A stretch of 19,492 nt of DNA from Dethiosulfatibacter sp. Its GTDB lineage: Bacteria > Bacillota_A > Clostridia > Tissierellales > Dethiosulfatibacteraceae. This document shows positions 9,459 to 19,492 of the stretch, one piece after another. Every line of letters starts with the position of its first letter. The stretch's first letter is position 1. The notes below the pieces were generated by a model. That model had not been told where the DNA came from and made no database searches. It saw only the letters and a program-made list of their open reading frames with translations. Made by a program: the position numbers and the translations under genes. The stretch is taken from positions 1 through 19,492 of the forward strand of contig JAHRFV010000110.1 in assembly GCA_019084435.1 (NCBI GenBank), in the 5' to 3' direction.

Positions 9459-10213
9459 TGTCTTTAGGTAAAGTTGATCTGACTAAAATAAAACCCTATG
9501 GGGACACACTGAACGATGGGAAAATGCAACTAAGCTTTACACTTCCTGTGCCTAAGGGAGATGAAGCGGATGAAGCCGCAAAGCAATTGGCTAGAAAGAT
9601 GGGATTGACAGAGGCAAGTGTTGTCCATTCCCATGATCTGGGTGTTGGTTACACATTCTTCATTATGTACGGCAATTGCAGCCATACTGTAGATTACTCT
9701 GTCATAGAGGTACCAAAGGTAGATCTGGAGTTTATGGATAAGGAAGGTGTCGAGCAATATATAGAAGAAAACATCAAAAGAGACGTGGTTATCATCGGAG
9801 CCTGCACAGGTAGTGACGCTCATACCGTCGGTATAGATGCTATTATGAATATGAAGGGTTTTGACGGACACTACGGGCTTGAAAGATATAAAGGAATAGA
9901 GGCCATCAATCTTGGTAGCCAAGTGGTTAATGAGGATCTTGTTGCGAAAGCAATCGAGCTCAATGCAGATGCGATTCTCGTTTCTCAGGTAGTGACCCAG
10001 AAGGATGTTCATATTCCAAATCTCACCCAGCTGGTAGAGATGATTGAAGCCGAGGGAATCAGAGATAAAATTGTATTGGTCGCAGGAGGTCCTCGACTTT
10101 CACATGAATTGGCTCAGGAATTAGGTTATGATGCTGGTTTTGGTCCGGGATCCTTCGCTAATCATGTGGCTACATTTATAGTCAAACAGATGGTTGAGCG
10201 AAAACTAGTATAG
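9458..10213 (+). CDS. kamE: Lysine 5,6-aminomutase, beta (B12-binding) subunit
   Basis: This is the small subunit of the KamDE mutase; it carries the Rossmann-type cobalamin domain and the PLP lysine. The 251-aa protein has the base-off motif D120-A-H122-T-V-G125 (GSDAHTVG), where H122 would coordinate cobalt. Exactly 11 residues later is K133 (NMKGFDG), the same spacing as between His133 and Lys144 of the characterised C. sticklandii subunit, so K133 is the likely PLP Schiff-base lysine. A conserved LVAGGPRLSHELAQELGYDAGFG stretch ends the B12 domain. GGAGG precedes the ATG, which overlaps the kamD stop. It is the last gene of the operon. No classical terminator follows; a palindromic repeat at 10327-10385 is the nearest strong structure. 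Confidence 0.96.
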   Translation: MSLGKVDLTKIKPYGDTLNDGKMQLSFTLPVPKGDEADEAAKQLARKMGLTEASVVHSHDLGVGYTFFIMYGNCSHTVDYSVIEVPKVDLEFMDKEGVEQYIEENIKRDVVIIGACTGSDAHTVGIDAIMNMKGFDGHYGLERYKGIEAINLGSQVVNEDLVAKAIELNADAILVSQVVTQKDVHIPNLTQLVEMIEAEGIRDKIVLVAGGPRLSHELAQELGYDAGFGPGSFANHVATFIVKQMVERKLV

Positions 10214-10326
10214 AACAACGCCAAGAATGCATTATGCTATTACATAGTAAAAAACACAATTATAGTTACCATGATAATCATGCAAGTAACAAGCCATCCC
10301 ACTTTCTAAAGCAACTCTAAAAACAC

Positions 10327-10385
10327 TAACGGTTTCTAAGGTTCAGATGGCGTTTGAAACGCCACCTGAACCCAAGAACCCTGTT
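10327..10385. repeat. REP-like palindromic repeat, copy A (overlaps 3' end of purE)
   Basis: This 59-bp imperfect palindrome runs from TAACGGTTTCTAAGG to CCAAGAACCCTGTT. Inner stems are GGTTCAG/CTGAACC and TGGCGT/ACGCCA around a TTGAA loop, and the outer GGTTTCT/AAGAACC partly pairs. It matches copy B at 14105-14164 with two substitutions and one inserted base. It lies in the convergent gap between kamE and purE and contributes the last codons and the stop of purE. It is probably mobilised by the RAYT-type transposase at 13282-14019 and may also stop transcription from both sides. Confidence 0.8.
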
Positions 10386-10927
10386 GATTGGGTTGATATA
10401 TCGTCAGAAATCAAGCTCTCCTCAAGTTTCTCATTCAAGTCATATATAAGTGTTTCTTTGATTTGTTCAGATCTCTCATTTAATTTATTATACAGATTAT
10501 CATTTTTTATGGCTAATATCCTCGCAGCTAAAAGTCCTGCATTTTTAGAGTTATTAATTCCAACCGATGCTACTGGAACACCACCGGGCATTTGTACAAT
10601 CGACATCAAAGAATCTAATCCATCCAACTCCTTAAGCTTAACAGGAACACCAATTACTGGAAGTTGAGTCAAAGATGCAACCATGCCAGGCAGATGAGCT
10701 GCACCGCCGGCACCTGCAATGATAACCTCTAACCCTCTGCTTTGAGCAGATTTTGCATACTCAAACATTCTTTCGGGTGTTCGATGTGCGGAAACAACTT
10801 TAATTTCATATGGTATTGATAGCTCTTCCATTATCAATGCGGCATTCTTCATTACTTTTAAATCCGATTCACTTCCCATAATAATTCCAACCTTTGACAG
10901 TTGATCATGCATTTTACAGTATTTCAT
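10343..10927 (-). CDS. purE: N5-carboxyaminoimidazole ribonucleotide mutase (PurE class I)
   Basis: PurE converts N5-CAIR to CAIR in de novo purine synthesis, acting after PurK. Motifs are GSESD (18-22), SAHRTP (46-51), [11 protein letters not shown] (72-82) and [10 protein letters not shown] (111-120). The ATG at 10927 is preceded by AGGAG at 10 nt; an in-frame TTG at 10954 has no site. At 194 aa it is longer than the usual 160-170. The last 13 residues ([13 protein letters not shown]) and the stop codon are read entirely from palindromic repeat copy A, so the C-terminus has been rewritten by insertion of the repeat. This tail lies beyond the catalytic core and is probably tolerated. It follows purK by 33 bp and is probably co-transcribed with it. 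Confidence 0.93.
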
Positions 10928-10960
10928 ATTTTTATCTCTCCTATTAATTATCAATGATTG

Positions 10961-12127
10961 TTACTTTTGATGGATTTTGATATTTTGTAAAGCAATATTT
11001 GCTTTCTTGTCTGCTGCGTCTACAGTTTCGCCCAATACGGTTAGATGTCCAATTTTTTTTAAATTGTCCGTTTCTGGCTTCCCGTATAAATGAAAATAAC
11101 AATCGGGTATGTTCAATACTCCTTCAAGCCCTCTAATTTCATACTTTCCCTTCACATCATCACTTCCCAGCAAGTTATACATCACACAAGGTGTCCTGAG
11201 ATAAGTAGAACCAATAGGCATGCCGCAAATAATCCTCACCAGTTGCTCAAACTGAGATGAAGAACAACACTCAATTGTATAATGACCTGAGTTATGAGGT
11301 CGCGGAGCAATCTCATTAACAATCACATCTAAATTTTTATCTATAAAAAATTCAATACAATATACACCAAAATCGTCAATTGAATCGACTATTTTTTTAC
11401 TCGTATCTCTGATTTTTTCTGTTACTTCATCTGGTATTGAGGAAGGTACAAGTGTTTTTATTAATATACTATTCTGATGGATATTCTCAACAACTGGATA
11501 AAAGAAAACACCTAAATCACTTTTAGCTACAACAATTGAAACCTCTTTAATAAAATCAATCAATTCTTCTATCATAATCATTTGCCCGTCAAACCCATGA
11601 TATATGCTTTCTAGATCAGCAACATTTTTGATAATCATATTTCCTTTTCCATCATAACCATTTGTACATGATTTTAAGATTGCCTTTTGATTGAAATGAT
11701 TAAACGCATCCATTAGATCATCTATACTATTTATCATTCTGAATTCAGGAACTTTAACACCTATTTGCTGGAGCATATTTTTCTGATTGTATTTGTTTTG
11801 GATGACTTTAAGCGTTCTAGAAGATGGTATTATCCTAGAACCTTCATTTTCAATTAATGACAATATTTCAACATCTATATGTTCAAATTCAAAAGTCATT
11901 ATATCAGTTTTTCGTGCCAACTCACGATAAGCCCATATCTCATCAAATCCAGCAACAATTTGCTCATCTGCCACTTGTCCAGCTGGTGAGTTTGTTTTGG
12001 GATCCAATACAACAGCGTTATAACCCATTCGTTTGGCTTCACAGACAATCATCTTACCTAGTTGTCCCCCTCCAATAACTCCGATAGTGGATGGAGGATA
12101 TAATTTGTCAATTTTTCGTTTAATCAC
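10961..12127 (-). CDS. purK: N5-carboxyaminoimidazole ribonucleotide synthase (ATP-grasp)
   Basis: PurK carboxylates AIR with ATP and bicarbonate to N5-CAIR, the substrate of PurE. The 388-aa protein has the N-terminal IGVIGGGQLGKM loop (about 15-26), an ATP-grasp core with ILKSCTNGYDGKGN and IEELIDFIKEVSIVVA, and the NEIAPRPHNSGHYTIE signature, all diagnostic of PurK. The start is GTG at 12127 with AAGGAAGG just upstream. The pair purK-purE forms a compact minus-strand unit isolated from other purine genes. Its A/T-rich codons (many AAT, ATT, AAA) look different from the flanking kam and arc genes by eye, which could mean transfer. I have not computed composition. No purine riboswitch was seen ahead of it. 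Confidence 0.95.
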   Translation of the reverse strand: MIKRKIDKLYPPSTIGVIGGGQLGKMIVCEAKRMGYNAVVLDPKTNSPAGQVADEQIVAGFDEIWAYRELARKTDIMTFEFEHIDVEILSLIENEGSRIIPSSRTLKVIQNKYNQKNMLQQIGVKVPEFRMINSIDDLMDAFNHFNQKAILKSCTNGYDGKGNMIIKNVADLESIYHGFDGQMIMIEELIDFIKEVSIVVAKSDLGVFFYPVVENIHQNSILIKTLVPSSIPDEVTEKIRDTSKKIVDSIDDFGVYCIEFFIDKNLDVIVNEIAPRPHNSGHYTIECCSSSQFEQLVRIICGMPIGSTYLRTPCVMYNLLGSDDVKGKYEIRGLEGVLNIPDCYFHLYGKPETDNLKKIGHLTVLGETVDAADKKANIALQNIKIHQK

Positions 12128-12150
12128 TGAACACCTTCCTTACATAATTA

Positions 12151-12195
12151 TAATAAAAAGCCAATAACAAATTCTGTGAGGAATTGTTATTGGCT
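12151..12195 (-). terminator. Rho-independent terminator after the DUF2294 gene
   Basis: On the minus strand, a stem of AGCCAATAACAA plus ATTC (12159-12174) and its complement (12181-12195), with one bulged base and a 6-nt loop, is followed by TTTTTATTAT. It ends the DUF2294 transcript and separates it from purK-purE, about 25 bp downstream. Confidence 0.8.
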
Positions 12196-12237
12196 AACTT
12201 CTGACTGGTTTAAAACCTTTCTTTCAGTCTTCCAAGG

Positions 12238-12600
12238 TTATTCGTTAATACTTTCTTCTAGGTTTTTATCCACTACGATGGCAATGATTTTTTCTCCTGT
12301 TTTTGTGCTGACATCTGAATATGTGCTAATCACACCCACATCAATAACGGATTTAATCGCATCCTCTAAACCATCCCTTGCGTTTTCAAATAGAGCGGTT
12401 CTAACTTTTTTTATCAGCTCAATCCCTTCACGGTTCTGAGCTAGGTTCTTCTCAGAAGGACTTAGAAAACCCTTTAGTCTAATAATTATAAGATCTTGGA
12501 AAATGATGGTACGTATCTTTTCAGGGCCACGTCCCATTTGTTCAATCTCAAACTTACTTATTGCTTCGCTGATTTTCGACTCAATTTGTCCTTTTGTCAT
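12238..12600 (-). CDS. DUF2294 family protein
   Basis: This 120-aa protein begins MTKGQIESKISEAISKFEIE and has MGRGPEKIRT, RLKGFLSPSEKNLAQ and STKTGEKIIAIVVDK, the conserved blocks of the DUF2294 family as I remember it. There are no membrane segments or signal peptide. The function is unknown. The ATG at 12600 fits the family's usual N-terminus and has GGGGA about 8-9 nt upstream; earlier in-frame ATGs at 12615, 12609 and 12606 overlap that ribosome site. It has its own sigma-70 promoter and terminator and so is monocistronic. Confidence 0.75.
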   Translation of the reverse strand: MTKGQIESKISEAISKFEIEQMGRGPEKIRTIIFQDLIIIRLKGFLSPSEKNLAQNREGIELIKKVRTALFENARDGLEDAIKSVIDVGVISTYSDVSTKTGEKIIAIVVDKNLEESINE

Positions 12601-12679
12601 GAACATCATCCCCATAATTTACTGTGATGGCCGGTACTTAATTTAATAATACCCGAACTTTGCCAGTTAATGTTTCATG

Positions 12680-12708
12680 ATTATAGCACATATAATCTAT
12701 GTATTCAA
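12680..12708 (-). promoter_or_regulatory. Sigma-70 promoter of the DUF2294 gene
   Basis: On the minus strand, TTGAAT (12703-12708) and TATAAT (12680-12685) are spaced by 17 bp, about 80 bp upstream of the start codon. The -10 matches the consensus perfectly. No operator-like dyad was noticed around it. Confidence 0.7.
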
Positions 12709-12811
12709 CTAAAATCTATTACTTATCATAAATTTAACGGTATAATTCAAGAATATCACGAACAATTCACTATCTGCTTTTATTTTCAGATTATTCTTTA
12801 ACAAAAGTAAA

Positions 12812-12841
12812 GAAGGTACAGTTCCTTCGAACTGTACCTTC
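12812..12841. repeat. Perfect hairpin of the GGKACRGTTCC type, 3' of the glutaredoxin gene
   Basis: GAAGGTACAGTT (12812-12823) pairs perfectly with AACTGTACCTTC (12830-12841), and an extra C-G pair closes a CTTC tetraloop. Read on the minus strand it is followed by TTTACTTTTGTT, so it could terminate the glutaredoxin transcript. Its core, AAGGTACAGTTCCTT, matches 13 of 15 bases in the hairpin at 13212-13226, which suggests a repeat family rather than a one-off terminator. Confidence 0.7.
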
Positions 12842-12880
12842 CTGTGATTGATAAAGAACCTTAAAATATCTATCTTAGAT

Positions 12881-13108
12881 TCAGTCTAGCAGAGAATCGA
12901 TTTTATTGGTATCGAAACCAACTACTTCAGTACCATCAACAATCGTTACCGGTACGCCCATATGTCCCATAGCCATAAGCTCTTTTCTAGCTTCTGCGTC
13001 AGAAGAAACATTTCTTTCAGTGTAAGAAACACCTTTGGTGTTCAAATAGTCTTTCATCATTGTACAATATGGACATGTGCTGCTTGTGTAAACTTTTATA
13101 TCTTTCAT
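12881..13108 (-). CDS. Glutaredoxin-like thiol-disulfide protein
   Basis: This is a 75-aa thioredoxin-fold protein with the dithiol site C12-P-Y-C15, the cis-proline loop GVPVT (P53) and a GFD turn (64-66). It resembles the short glutaredoxin/NrdH-like proteins of anaerobes and probably reduces disulfides or persulfides in the cytoplasm. AGGAGG precedes the ATG. The promoter is covered by a CsoR/CstR-type dyad, so expression probably responds to copper or to reactive sulfur species. It is flanked by two related hairpins (12812-12841 and 13200-13238) and is probably monocistronic. The electron donor cannot be inferred from the window. Confidence 0.88.
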   Translation of the reverse strand: MKDIKVYTSSTCPYCTMMKDYLNTKGVSYTERNVSSDAEARKELMAMGHMGVPVTIVDGTEVVGFDTNKIDSLLD

Positions 13109-13150
13109 TTTAAATCCTCCTAAGTGATTATTAATATTTTCTATAATCGA

Positions 13151-13179
13151 AGTATACCCCTATAGGGTATCAAGTTCAA
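13151..13179 (-). promoter_or_regulatory. Glutaredoxin promoter with CsoR/CstR-type operator in the spacer
   Basis: On the minus strand, TTGAAC (13174-13179) and TATACT (13151-13156) are spaced by 17 bp. The dyad ATACCCCTATAGGGTAT (13154-13170, plus strand) fills the spacer. G/C tracts flanking TATA inside ATAC/GTAT arms are the style of operator used by the CsoR-RcnR-CstR repressors for Cu(I), Ni or persulfide. No such repressor gene is in the window. Confidence 0.7.
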
Positions 13180-13199
13180 TAGTTTTGGTCAAATTTCTT

Positions 13200-13238
13200 C
13201 TCAAAAAACAAAAGGGACGGTTCCTTTTGTTTTTTGAG
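13200..13238. repeat. 16-bp perfect hairpin ahead of the RAYT gene
   Basis: CTCAAAAAACAAAAGG (13200-13215) and its exact complement (13223-13238) flank the 7-nt loop GACGGTT. The core GGGACGGTTCC is related to that of the hairpin at 12812-12841. Position just upstream of a Y1 transposase suggests a recognition or left-end structure. A -10-like TATAAT lies at 13244-13249 with no good -35, which would fall inside the hairpin. Confidence 0.75.
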
Positions 13239-13281
13239 CATGATATAATCAATTATAGTCCATAAGAAAGGAGCAATTCAA

Positions 13282-14019
13282 ATGCCTAGACTGAAAAGAG
13301 AAAAAAGTGCCACAGGAATATACCATGTCATGCTCAGGGGAAATAACAAGAATCGGATCTTCGAGTTGGAGCAGGATAAGGGGAAATTATATAACATATT
13401 AAAGGAAGTGAAGGACGAGTATTCATTTAAACTATATGCCTATTGCATAATGAATAACCATTGCCATTTACTGGTGAAGGAGGAAGATATACCAATCAAT
13501 GAATTCATGAAAATGATTAACCAAAAGTATGCGGTTTATTACAACAGAAACAGAAACAAGGTAGGGCATGTTTTTCAGGATAGGTTCAGAAGCGAACCTG
13601 TTGAGGACGATAGTTATTTTCTTGGTCTTGTCCGATATATCCATCTAAATCCAGTGGAGGCAAAATTGGTTGACGATCCCTACCAATATAAATGGTGCAG
13701 CTATAAGGAGTATTTCTACGAAACGCCTTTGATGATTGATTCCGAGTTTGTCAAAACCAACATCTGTCCTGAAAGGGAAAACTTCAGAAAAAATTTCATC
13801 AATCTCCACAGGGGTGATGATGAAAATTTGTATCTCGATACATATGAAACGAAAGAGGCGAGAAAAACGAAGATTGCTGAAAGAGTATTTCATAATAATG
13901 GGGGTGTCAATGAAAAGTCGATTAAAAGGCTTAAGGACAACACGGGTATGACCTTCAGAGACATAGCTCGAGTTGCGAATATCTCCATCAATATGGTCAA
14001 TAAATTTCTTAACCTATAA
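13282..14019 (+). mobile_element. RAYT-type Y1 (HUH) transposase, IS200/IS605-related, REP-associated
   Basis: This 245-aa single-strand DNA transposase of the TnpA_REP/RAYT group is predicted to nick and join palindromic single-stranded DNA through a 5'-phosphotyrosine. The HUH motif is H60-C-H62 (MNNHCHLLV), and the nucleophile is probably Y119 in LVRYIHLNP. GHVFQDRF (95-102) and the opening LKREKSATGIYHVMLRGNNK are family signatures. Beyond about 160 it has a C-terminal extension ending in a helix-turn-helix (TFRDIARVANISINMVNKFL) like those fused to many Bacillota RAYTs. The start has AAGGAG at 8 nt. The reading frame is intact, so activity is plausible. It is flanked by a 16-bp hairpin on the left and palindromic repeats on the right. 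The stop codon abuts a repeat end. Confidence 0.9.
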
Positions 14020-14038
14020 CCCAAGAACCCTGTTTACC
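14020..14038. repeat. Half copy of the REP-like repeat abutting the RAYT stop codon
   Basis: CCCAAGAACCCTGTTTACC here is identical to the right end of copy B (14150-14168), and its first 16 bases match copy A (10371-10385) at every base but the last. Only the right end of the palindrome is present, directly after the transposase TAA stop. It may mark the element's right boundary or an earlier excision scar. Confidence 0.75.
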
Positions 14039-14047
14039 CGATGACTA

Positions 14048-14092
14048 ACAGTGCTAAGACTCCCACTTCAATAACTGGGAGATAAGCACTGT
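14048..14092. repeat. Imperfect stem-loop between repeat copies
   Basis: ACAGTGCT (14048-14055) pairs with AGCACTGT (14085-14092), and CTCCCA (14060-14065) pairs with TGGGAG (14076-14081) around a 10-nt loop, giving a two-part stem. There is no T-tract. It lies between the half copy and copy B, in the convergent gap between the RAYT gene and the PHP gene. Confidence 0.65.
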
Positions 14093-14104
14093 AGAGTCCC
14101 TGGA

Positions 14105-14168
14105 TAACGGTTTCTAAGGTTCAGATAACGTTTGAAAACGCCACCTGAACCCAAGAACCCTGTTTACC
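14105..14168. repeat. REP-like palindromic repeat, copy B (supplies the PHP gene stop codon)
   Basis: This second full copy of the palindrome (60-bp core to 14164, extended by TTACC shared with the half copy) has inner arms GGTTCAG/CTGAACC and AACGTTT..AAAACG. The TAA stop of the PHP-domain gene (14164-14166, minus) lies inside its right end, as the purE stop lies inside copy A. Confidence 0.8.
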
Positions 14169-14997
14169 TCGCCTCAGCATATTGGTATAAAAGATTGGTA
14201 TCCTTTATGCCATATTGACCGATAACAGCTTCCCAGGTAGTAAAATCACCATGCCAGTCAGACCCACCTGTTGCAACCAGATTGTTTTTTGAAACAAAAT
14301 CATTGTATCGTTTATTCAGTTTATCGTCATGATAAGGATAGTAAACCTCGATACCGCCCAGGCCATGTGGCAATAGCTTATCTATTTCCTTTAGGTCTTC
14401 ATTGCCTAATCTAGCAGGATGGGCAAATACAGGGATGCCACCGGCTTCTATGATAATTTCAACAGCATCAGCTGAAGCAAATGGAAATTTATCAGGAAAG
14501 GTATAAGAAAACCGATTGTAGGTTCGCATGTAAAAATCAGGCCAATCCTTAAGCTTGTAAGGATGCCCGTCTTGAATCATTGCCTTGTACAAATCCGAAA
14601 GATAGATGCTATCCTTGAAAGACATCAGTTCTTCAACCCTTGACGCCCTGTAATCAATCATACCGAGCCTATTGAGCTTGGATATCATATCCAATGAGTA
14701 CTTTGTAGTATATTCATTGGTTATTTTTATGAAATCCAATAGCTGGCGACATTTGTGGTCTATGAGGTAACCAAGTACGTGAATAGAGTGGCTATTGGAG
14801 ACTGAAGTCAGTTCAATTGCAGGAATGACAGCTATGTCATGTTGTGTGGCAATCGATGTTATTTGGTCTATGCCTGAGACAGTATCATGATCAGTCAGCG
14901 AAAATTCCTTGATACCATTTTCTCTTGCAATCTCAATTATTTCTTCGATCGAATCAGTACCATCTGATAAATCCGAGTGAATATGTAAATCAATCAT
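14164..14997 (-). CDS. PHP-domain metal-dependent phosphoesterase (TrpH/YciV-like)
   Basis: This 277-aa member of the PHP family has H5-I-H7 (DLHIHSDLSDGT), LTDHDT (34-39), IELTS (61-65), FAHPAR with H193, and GSDWHG (245-250). These give the histidine/aspartate set for a tri- or dinuclear metal site. Relatives hydrolyse 3',5'-nucleoside bisphosphates (pAp) or act as 5'-3' exonucleases on short RNA, so a nucleotide or RNA salvage role is likely but unproven. The start is ATG at 14997 with AAAGGA 9 nt upstream; an in-frame TTG at 15006 directly abuts that site. It is divergent from the IclR-type regulator and convergent with the RAYT gene. Its stop codon comes from the palindromic repeat. Confidence 0.9.
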   Translation of the reverse strand: MIDLHIHSDLSDGTDSIEEIIEIARENGIKEFSLTDHDTVSGIDQITSIATQHDIAVIPAIELTSVSNSHSIHVLGYLIDHKCRQLLDFIKITNEYTTKYSLDMISKLNRLGMIDYRASRVEELMSFKDSIYLSDLYKAMIQDGHPYKLKDWPDFYMRTYNRFSYTFPDKFPFASADAVEIIIEAGGIPVFAHPARLGNEDLKEIDKLLPHGLGGIEVYYPYHDDKLNKRYNDFVSKNNLVATGGSDWHGDFTTWEAVIGQYGIKDTNLLYQYAEAR

Positions 14998-15028
14998 CGT
15001 GTTCAATCCTTTAAAATATAATAAGGCT

Positions 15029-19268: not shown

Positions 19269-19303
19269 AAAAAAGGCGAAGAATAATTTCTCCGCCTTTT
19301 TTT
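19269..19303. terminator. Bidirectional rho-independent terminator after arcC
   Basis: AAAAAAGGCG (19269-19278) pairs with CGCCTTTTTT (19293-19302), with AGAA/TTCT inside and one A-C mismatch, closing on a TAAT loop. The A-run on the left and T-run on the right let it stop arcABC and also any convergent gene from the right. Its right half is duplicated at 19435. Confidence 0.9.
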
Positions 19304-19343
19304 AATAACTTCATCTTAATACTTCCAATGCCTTCTGCAACTG
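19286..19343. repeat. Direct repeat, first copy (58 bp, period 149 bp)
   Basis: Starting in the terminator loop (ATTTCTCCGCC), these 58 bases recur without a mismatch at 19435-19492, where the window ends. The true repeat length is therefore unknown and may be the full 149-bp unit. Confidence 0.9.
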
Positions 19344-19434: not shown

Positions 19435-19492
19435 ATTTCTCCGCCTTTTTTTAATAACTTCATCTTAATACTTCCAATGCCTTCTGCAACTG
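19435..19492. repeat. Direct repeat, second copy (runs off window)
   Basis: This copy is identical to 19286-19343. It contains only the right half of the arc terminator: the left arm is replaced by unrelated sequence (ACGGTTTGTTGG), so the duplication breakpoint fell in the terminator loop. Confidence 0.9.

What the first reader, a model, noticed from the sequence alone, without database searches (positions are those of the whole stretch)
10327..14168. RAYT transposase with dispersed palindromes that supply C-terminal codons and stop codons to neighbours
Seen: two near-identical 59/60-bp imperfect palindromes (10327-10385 and 14105-14164, two substitutions and one indel apart) plus a half copy (14020-14038). 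All lie at gene 3' ends in the two convergent gaps around an intact HUH/Y1 transposase. Copy A encodes the last 13 residues and stop of PurE, copy B holds the stop of the PHP gene, and the half copy abuts the transposase stop. Known: RAYTs mobilise REP palindromes in gammaproteobacteria. Inferred: this is a clostridial RAYT-REP system whose repeats favour convergent 3' ends, may act as bidirectional terminators and can rewrite protein tails.
Basis: partly seen in the sequence, partly recalled or inferred. Interest (0 to 1): 0.75.

Follow-up and report, generated by a model that had tools for sequence, protein, structure and literature searches.

The report
Self-nesting hairpin element near transposase
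The repeated palindromes beside this transposase gene are pieces of a 129-base, two-hairpin mobile element without a gene of its own that has dozens of copies in each of three related genomes, inserts after TTTAT-like sites (sometimes into its own copies) and can change a protein's last residues, while the neighbouring transposase is probably not its dedicated partner.

Summary
The palindromes are real but are the right half of a larger unit. Copy B is the 3' half of a 130-bp element (window 14038-14167) with two hairpins; copy A keeps only the right hairpin; the "half copy" is an 18-20-bp right-end scar. Three related genomes hold 26, 99 and 39 left ends (reversed control 0). Filled/empty comparisons and nested copies show insertion 3' of TTTAT-like sites without target duplication, the IS200/IS605 mode. 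Both hairpins covary. So this is a non-autonomous IS200/IS605-type element (MITE/PATE).

The RAYT link is weak. The orthologous transposase loci of two relatives lack the element, as do all 36 other sources searched (34 distinct Y1 places). The protein's Y motif fits subclass 2.1, for which no REPs are reported; another palindrome sits upstream of the gene and recurs in a relative. The mobilising enzyme is not identified.

Tail rewriting is real: PurE gains 14 residues over its closest relative; PHP has the same kind of tail in a sister genome. Stop-codon hits (7 of 51, 4.2 expected) show no clear excess, gene contexts match expectation, and no terminator is seen. Unexpected: elements insert into each other's hairpin loop, giving 35-bp ladders.

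The parts
   Evidence: (R1, positions 1-129, E 2.6e-24, but this copy is one of the 30 rows R1 was built from)
14048..14093 (+). left (LE) hairpin, coordinates approximate; core similar to hairpins upstream of tnpA in some IS605-type loci of relatives; its loop is the self-target in other copies
14018..14037 (+). 18-20-bp right-end scar (AACCCAAGAACCCTGTTTAC) of another copy, directly before the full element; its first two bases are also the end of the transposase stop
10327..10388 (+). solo right hairpin (copy A), an element without its left part, ending TTGAT
10343..10387 (-). purE codons supplied by copy [15 protein letters not shown] plus stop TGA
10343..10954 (-). purE
14164..15006 (-). 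PHP-domain gene; its stop TAA lies in the last bases of the element; the G002 ortholog reads 14 codons into its copy
13282..14019 (+). Y1 (HUH) transposase of the REP-associated type; motifs NHCH and YIHLNP; same place in G001 and G003
13200..13238 (.). palindrome CTCAAAAAACAAAAGGGACGGTTCCTTTTGTTTTTTGAG just upstream of the transposase; also upstream of it in G001, with further copies there; candidate own repeat of the RAYT

Best explanation
The repeat is a 129-130-bp non-autonomous transposable element of the IS200/IS605 (single-strand, HUH/Y1) type, a MITE/PATE, with a left hairpin, a right hairpin and no gene. SHOWN by comparison: it starts at CCGATGAC, usually ends at TTGAT or TTAAT, sits 3' of TTTAT-like sites and leaves no target duplication. 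Both hairpins are under pairing constraint. Some copies lie in the TTCTAT loop of another copy's left hairpin. Some lie inside stop codons, adding SDD-stop on one side or [18 protein letters not shown] on the other. INFERRED: a Y1 transposase acting in trans excises and inserts it as single-stranded DNA, and the internal GGATAACGG pairs with TTTATCC on the left or CCTGTT(G)AT on the right and so helps choose the site. In the window lineage one copy lies in the RAYT-PHP gap; G002 has one at the PHP end too and G001 none. Another lay at the purE 3' end and kept only its right hairpin. The RAYT next to it is most likely an old, separately inherited gene and not the element's dedicated partner.
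For: Copies in G001 (22 of 47 matches span 122-140 bp) and G002; left ends 26/99/39 in G001/G002/G003, reversed control 0. Of 63 full copies 59 end TTGAT or TTAAT; the 5' flank is TTTAT in 24 of 54 after dropping 8 nested copies and one cut copy. Empty sites: arcC in the window against G002; G002 (for L014) and G003 (for L131) with a stop codon across the junction; the PHP end empty in G001, filled in window and G002. Nested copy resuming without duplication; 35-bp ladders. Covariation: 16 of 44 pairs changed on both sides, 0 of 500 shuffles. Left hairpin core matches hairpins upstream of tnpA in 3 IS605-type loci. PurE tail.
Against: No autonomous element with both ends was found. G001 has no PF01385 (TnpB) hit and only the RAYT plus an IS200 remnant as Y1; G002 has no Y1 hit. 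The right hairpin was not matched to any IS605 element. Of 25 IS-type Y1 places not chosen for the hairpin, 24 lack a hairpin-1 match and one has a weak one. The left cleavage site would pair with sequence 3' of its hairpin, whereas the IS608 guide is 5' of it. Two of 11 folded copies show no such pairing and two only part of it. The G001 site matching L127 is not clean: it holds what looks like a right-end scar. The structure tested was drawn from one of its rows. The genomes are a MAG and unnamed assemblies, some clearly incomplete.
Confidence: 0.8

Rival explanations
1. The RAYT (or its relatives) mobilises the element in trans: a clostridial RAYT with an unusual two-hairpin partner.
For: RAYT-like genes are the only intact Y1 genes seen in G001 and G003; G017, with 20 model matches, has only four long RAYT-like Y1 genes; copies are up to 99% identical to the typed consensus and so look recent.
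Against: No element beside the orthologous RAYTs of G001 and G003 or the other fetched Y1 loci. Y1 genes are common in relatives without the element. The Y motif fits subclass 2.1, for which no REPs were found (PMC6006769). The RAYT has another palindrome upstream. No conserved GT[AG]G at a 5' hairpin foot.
Confidence: 0.15
2. The element is kept as a functional RNA or DNA structure (terminator, mRNA stabiliser) and its spread is incidental.
For: Strong conserved two-hairpin structure.
Against: No Rfam match at gathering score in the window, no terminator-like site at the copies, contexts as expected, presence and absence between sister genomes; the structure is equally expected of a single-strand transposon.
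Confidence: 0.04
3. The element is favoured or retained at stop codons, so that supplying stops and tails is more than a by-product.
For: PurE and G002 PHP share nearly the same 14-residue tail; several copies split T|AA or T|AG stops. Leaving out 9 copies that lie inside called ORFs, as the control did, gives 7 of 42 against about 3.5 (one-sided p 0.054).
Against: 7 of 51 against 4.2 expected for target-like sites (p 0.12); contexts as expected.
Confidence: 0.1

Closest known systems
PATEs / MITEs derived from IS200/IS605 (e.g. the PATE-like element of Halanaerobium hydrogeniformans, PMC7290912, passages seen)
   Same: Short, gene-less, left and right hairpins, thought to move by a transposase in trans
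   Different: No parent IS found here; many copies; one internal GGATAACGG can pair with both cleavage sites in folds; the left loop mimics the target, giving self-nesting and 35-bp ladders
IS608 / ISDra2 (autonomous IS200/IS605; PMC5934647, passages seen)
   Same: Insertion 3' of a short target retained in the left flank; subterminal hairpins; guide-target base pairing in IS608
   Different: No tnpA/tnpB; target TTTAT-like; at the left end the candidate pairing partner lies 3' of the hairpin, not 5'
REP/REPIN-RAYT systems (PMC6006769 sections, PMC3733652 passages; PMC2817692 and PMC3116915 search listing only)
   Same: Dispersed palindromes in genomes with a Y1 gene; stop codons provided to ORFs by GTAG REPs are already described (PMC3733652)
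   Different: 129 bp with two unlike hairpins, no conserved GT[AG]G foot, not found flanking the RAYT in other genomes
TIRYT / Y1 subclass 2.1 (PMC3733652, PMC6006769): comparison for the window's transposase
   Same: Length 245 aa, YIHLNP motif, weak C-terminal helix-turn-helix match, GGGAC-containing palindrome upstream
   Different: HUH is NHCH, not a listed form; one upstream palindrome seen and no pair of terminal inverted repeats; the published TIR motif is GGGGWSAS

Membership tests
IS200/IS605-type non-autonomous element (MITE/PATE) | subterminal hairpins at both ends | tested here: met
   (44 pairs, 91% of cells paired, 16 pairs with double changes, 0 of 500 shuffles; structure drawn from one row)
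IS200/IS605-type non-autonomous element (MITE/PATE) | inserts 3' of a short target, no target duplication | tested here: met
IS200/IS605-type non-autonomous element (MITE/PATE) | no transposase gene inside | tested here: met
   129-130 bp
IS200/IS605-type non-autonomous element (MITE/PATE) | shares both ends with an autonomous IS | tested here: inconclusive
   left hairpin core matches in 14 of 39 loci, 13 of which were in the set because an earlier search had matched them; 3 have tnpA detected downstream; right end not matched to an IS
IS200/IS605-type non-autonomous element (MITE/PATE) | moved by a TnpA in trans | not testable with these tools
   needs an assay
REP/RAYT (REPtron) | repeat family flanks the RAYT gene | tested here: not met
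   seen in the window only; 0 of 36 other sources (34 distinct Y1 places, about 10 with long RAYT-like frames, orthologs in G001 and G003 among them; about 1.5 kb each side where the contig allows) match R1 at E <= 1
REP/RAYT (REPtron) | GT[AG]G at the 5' foot of a short hairpin | tested here: not met
   alignment A1 (30 rows): GTAG appears on the 3' side of hairpin 1 in part of the rows and is not conserved; none conserved at a 5' foot (read)
REP/RAYT (REPtron) | Y1 protein of the RAYT kind | tested here: inconclusive
   NF047646 79.1 bits against cut-off 80; Y1_Tnp 62.6 bits, cut-off 23
TIRYT / Y1 subclass 2.1 (the window's transposase) | Y[IV]HLNP motif, about 238 aa, C-terminal helix-turn-helix | tested here: inconclusive
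   YIHLNP and 245 aa met; HUH is NHCH, not the listed NHVH or NH[YF]H; HTH_24 E 0.0046, below its cut-off

The most novel reading that the evidence does not exclude
A two-hairpin single-strand element in which one internal guide (GGATAACGG) serves both cleavage sites in mutually exclusive pairings, and whose left-hairpin loop is a copy of its own target, so that copies enter each other and the element grows by 35-nt steps into composite mobile units, driven in trans by a RAYT-like enzyme rather than by a classical TnpA.
Probability: 0.12. Interest if true: 0.65.

Novelty: new member of a known kind. Interest (0 to 1): 0.42.

Why it matters
It shows that palindromes beside a RAYT gene need not be its REPs, and gives a case, with natural empty sites, where a gene-less element changes protein C-termini because its target (TTTAT and the like) can overlap a stop codon. 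The loop that mimics the target makes self-insertion and stepwise growth of a single-strand transposon directly testable.

Tried and rejected
Own genome: not held. Plasmids and phages: no match to window 14000-14180. Viral contigs: no exact match for two patterns. Genome contigs with the RAYT protein: one locus, L001. TnpB (PF01385) in G001: none. Convergent preference: tested and dropped. Stop-codon preference: no clear excess. Terminators: 4 terminator-like sites in 9900-14700 against 2.7 in shuffles, none at a copy. RNAalifold lost the right hairpin on the mixed alignment, so I gave the structure by hand from the fold of L002; the counts lean towards it. R1 was built from the window and genomes G001, G002, G003, G017, G045 and G057, so its matches there are by construction; new strong ones are G025 and G044.

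Rows dropped: one search counts only BLAST pieces that reach from element position 6 or earlier to 122 or later, and includes one cut copy (L019) with wrong borders. Searches also drop copies with under 300 bp of flank and repeated flanks (52 and 51 left; one search also drops window and L142). The control leaves out target sites inside called ORFs while 9 of the 51 observed copies lie in one; ORFs were called by a simple length rule. Genome searches scored only part of the candidates (G002 40 of 136; 34 per genome; 8), so those copy numbers are lower bounds; one search gives totals but did not list all matches. An earlier count said that several nested sites resume AAGTGGG; only L142 and L203 were seen to do so.

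Papers: PMC6006769 outline, sections 12 and 15 (part 1) and passages; PMC3733652, PMC5934647, PMC7290912, PMC4853749 passages; PMC10969869 a term search without hits; PMC2817692 and PMC3116915 search listing only. I found no report of this element in searches of one open-licence library; ISfinder was not available.
Full report
What is in the window. Copy A supplies the last 14 codons and the stop of purE; the element that holds copy B ends over the PHP stop; the half copy abuts the transposase stop. Both palindromes fold better than every shuffle, and the stretch between half copy and copy B folds too (z -5.05).

The real unit. One relative was found through the transposase: L001, from "MAG: Clostridiales bacterium 38_11", 85-90% identical in DNA over the shared stretches. 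Its genome (G001) gave 47 matches to window 14015-14170, 22 of them spanning 122-140 bp. The unit is window 14038-14167, CCGATGAC...CCCTGTTTAC, with copy B as its right half, copy A as a solo right hairpin and the half copy as a right-end scar. G002 gave 65 matches with 40 of 136 candidates scored. A left-end pattern gave 26, 99 and 39 sites in G001, G002 and G003 and none for the reversed pattern. By covariance model 14 of 100 genomes (G001 included) have a match at E <= 0.01, eight at 2.4e-7 or better; six of those eight had given sequences to the model.

How it inserts. Of 63 full copies, 48 end TTGAT and 11 TTAAT. After dropping 8 copies nested in another and one cut copy, 24 of 54 are preceded by TTTAT, and the last base is T in 51. 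Empty sites agree. G001 has TCTAT directly followed by the PHP end, where window and G002 carry the element; of G002 only the right half and PHP side are assembled. The window's arcC end is empty where G002 has a copy, nothing duplicated. A nested G002 copy splits another's loop between TTCTAT and AAGTGGG, again without duplication. One tested site is not clean: for L127, G001 holds what looks like a right-end scar. Insertion 3' of a short target is the IS200/IS605 mode (PMC5934647 passages).

Structure. On 30 aligned copies the two-hairpin structure keeps 91% of pairs, with 16 of 44 pairs changed on both sides; none of 500 shuffles reached this, and slid versions fall to 28-47% paired. I named the structure from one copy, which favours it. 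When TTTAT is added in front, it pairs wholly or mostly with the internal GGATAA in 7 of 11 folded copies, in part in 2, not in 2; without it the same region pairs with the right end in 6 of 11. I read this as a shared guide, which is inference.

Self-nesting. Eight of 63 copies lie in the left-hairpin loop of another. Of ten G002 stretches, most picked for close left ends, nine show one or two 35-bp units in front of a full or cut element. At one site G001 has a single copy and G002 a 35-bp unit plus a full copy between matching flanks. Only two nested sites were seen to keep the outer copy's remainder (L142, L203); collapse of a 94-bp direct repeat after nesting would explain the rest (inference).

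Protein tails. P0002, the closest listed PurE (89% identical), ends DDISIQ where the window has DDISTQ followed by [14 protein letters not shown]. None of the 8 relatives fetched has this tail, though P0008 and P0009 have other longer ends. In G002 the PHP protein reads into its copy and ends STGFLCSGGFSNAI. On the other side, copies inside stop codons add SDD: L005, L008, L021 and L131 end in SDD, L014 in a longer variant (the L131 frame is only 99 aa). The matching sites in G002 (for L014) and G003 (for L131) have TAA across the junction; for L021 the G003 alignment is gapped there. Stop-codon hits are 7 of 51 against 4.2 expected (p 0.12), or 7 of 42 against about 3.5 if copies inside called ORFs are left out (p 0.054): no clear excess. 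Contexts (33 tandem, 8 convergent, 9 divergent, 1 unassigned) match expectation. Stop codons supplied by REPs are already described (PMC3733652 passages). So the tail effect is real and, as far as tested, incidental.

The transposase. It is a Y1 protein just under the REP-transposase cut-off, with motifs NHCH and YIHLNP. By the table in PMC6006769 the Y motif and length fit subclass 2.1, for which no REPs were found; NHCH is not among the listed HUH forms. It sits at the same place in G001 and, more diverged, in G003, without the element. One search covered 37 sources; apart from the window none of 36 (34 distinct Y1 places) matched at E <= 1. A palindrome with GGGACGGTTCC lies just upstream in window and G001. 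In G003 a degenerate form can be read there, but the hairpin scan did not report it. In G001 the pattern has 9 forward and 8 reverse matches at 9 places, control 0; two of these places share flanks and are probably one. That is the better candidate for the RAYT's own repeat. Y1 genes occur in 76 of 100 genomes, so co-occurrence tells little. G002 has none, but its assembly lacks the RAYT region.

Which enzyme moves it is open. The left hairpin core matches hairpins upstream of tnpA in loci of G045, G031 and G078, which hints at a TnpA-like enzyme, but those loci came from a search for this very sequence; 24 of 25 IS-type Y1 places not so chosen lack it, and the right end was matched to none. 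Against me: in G001 and G003 the only intact Y1 genes seen are RAYT-like. I leave the RAYT-in-trans reading at 0.15.

Verdict. A new family of a known kind with a striking self-nesting habit.

Noticed in passing
window 10213-12879: purE, purK and an MpsC-like gene are missing from the same place in L001 and G003 (L141), which keep the ora genes, the glutaredoxin-like gene, the transposase and PHP in order.
   Followed up: partly
window 13200-13238: A 39-bp palindrome just upstream of the transposase is also there in G001 and has further copies in that genome; candidate repeat of the RAYT.
   Followed up: partly
window 12810-12843: A 15-pair hairpin with a T-rich tail on the minus strand, the longest terminator-like site of 9900-14700.
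   Followed up: no
window 19286-19343 and 19435-19492: An exact 58-bp direct repeat at the very end of the window.
   Followed up: no
L199 (G002:C197:7900-8600): A tandem block of about 160 bp that includes a truncated element and its flank.
   Followed up: no
L038, L051, L057 (G033): Near-identical stretches with the left hairpin core that stop shortly after it at the end of the fetched sequence, in a genome with no Y1 hit.
   Followed up: no
G001:C124:39896-40189 (L195): The site matching G002 copy L127 holds an apparent right-end scar (AACCCTGTTGAT), like the scar at window 14018-14037.
   Followed up: no
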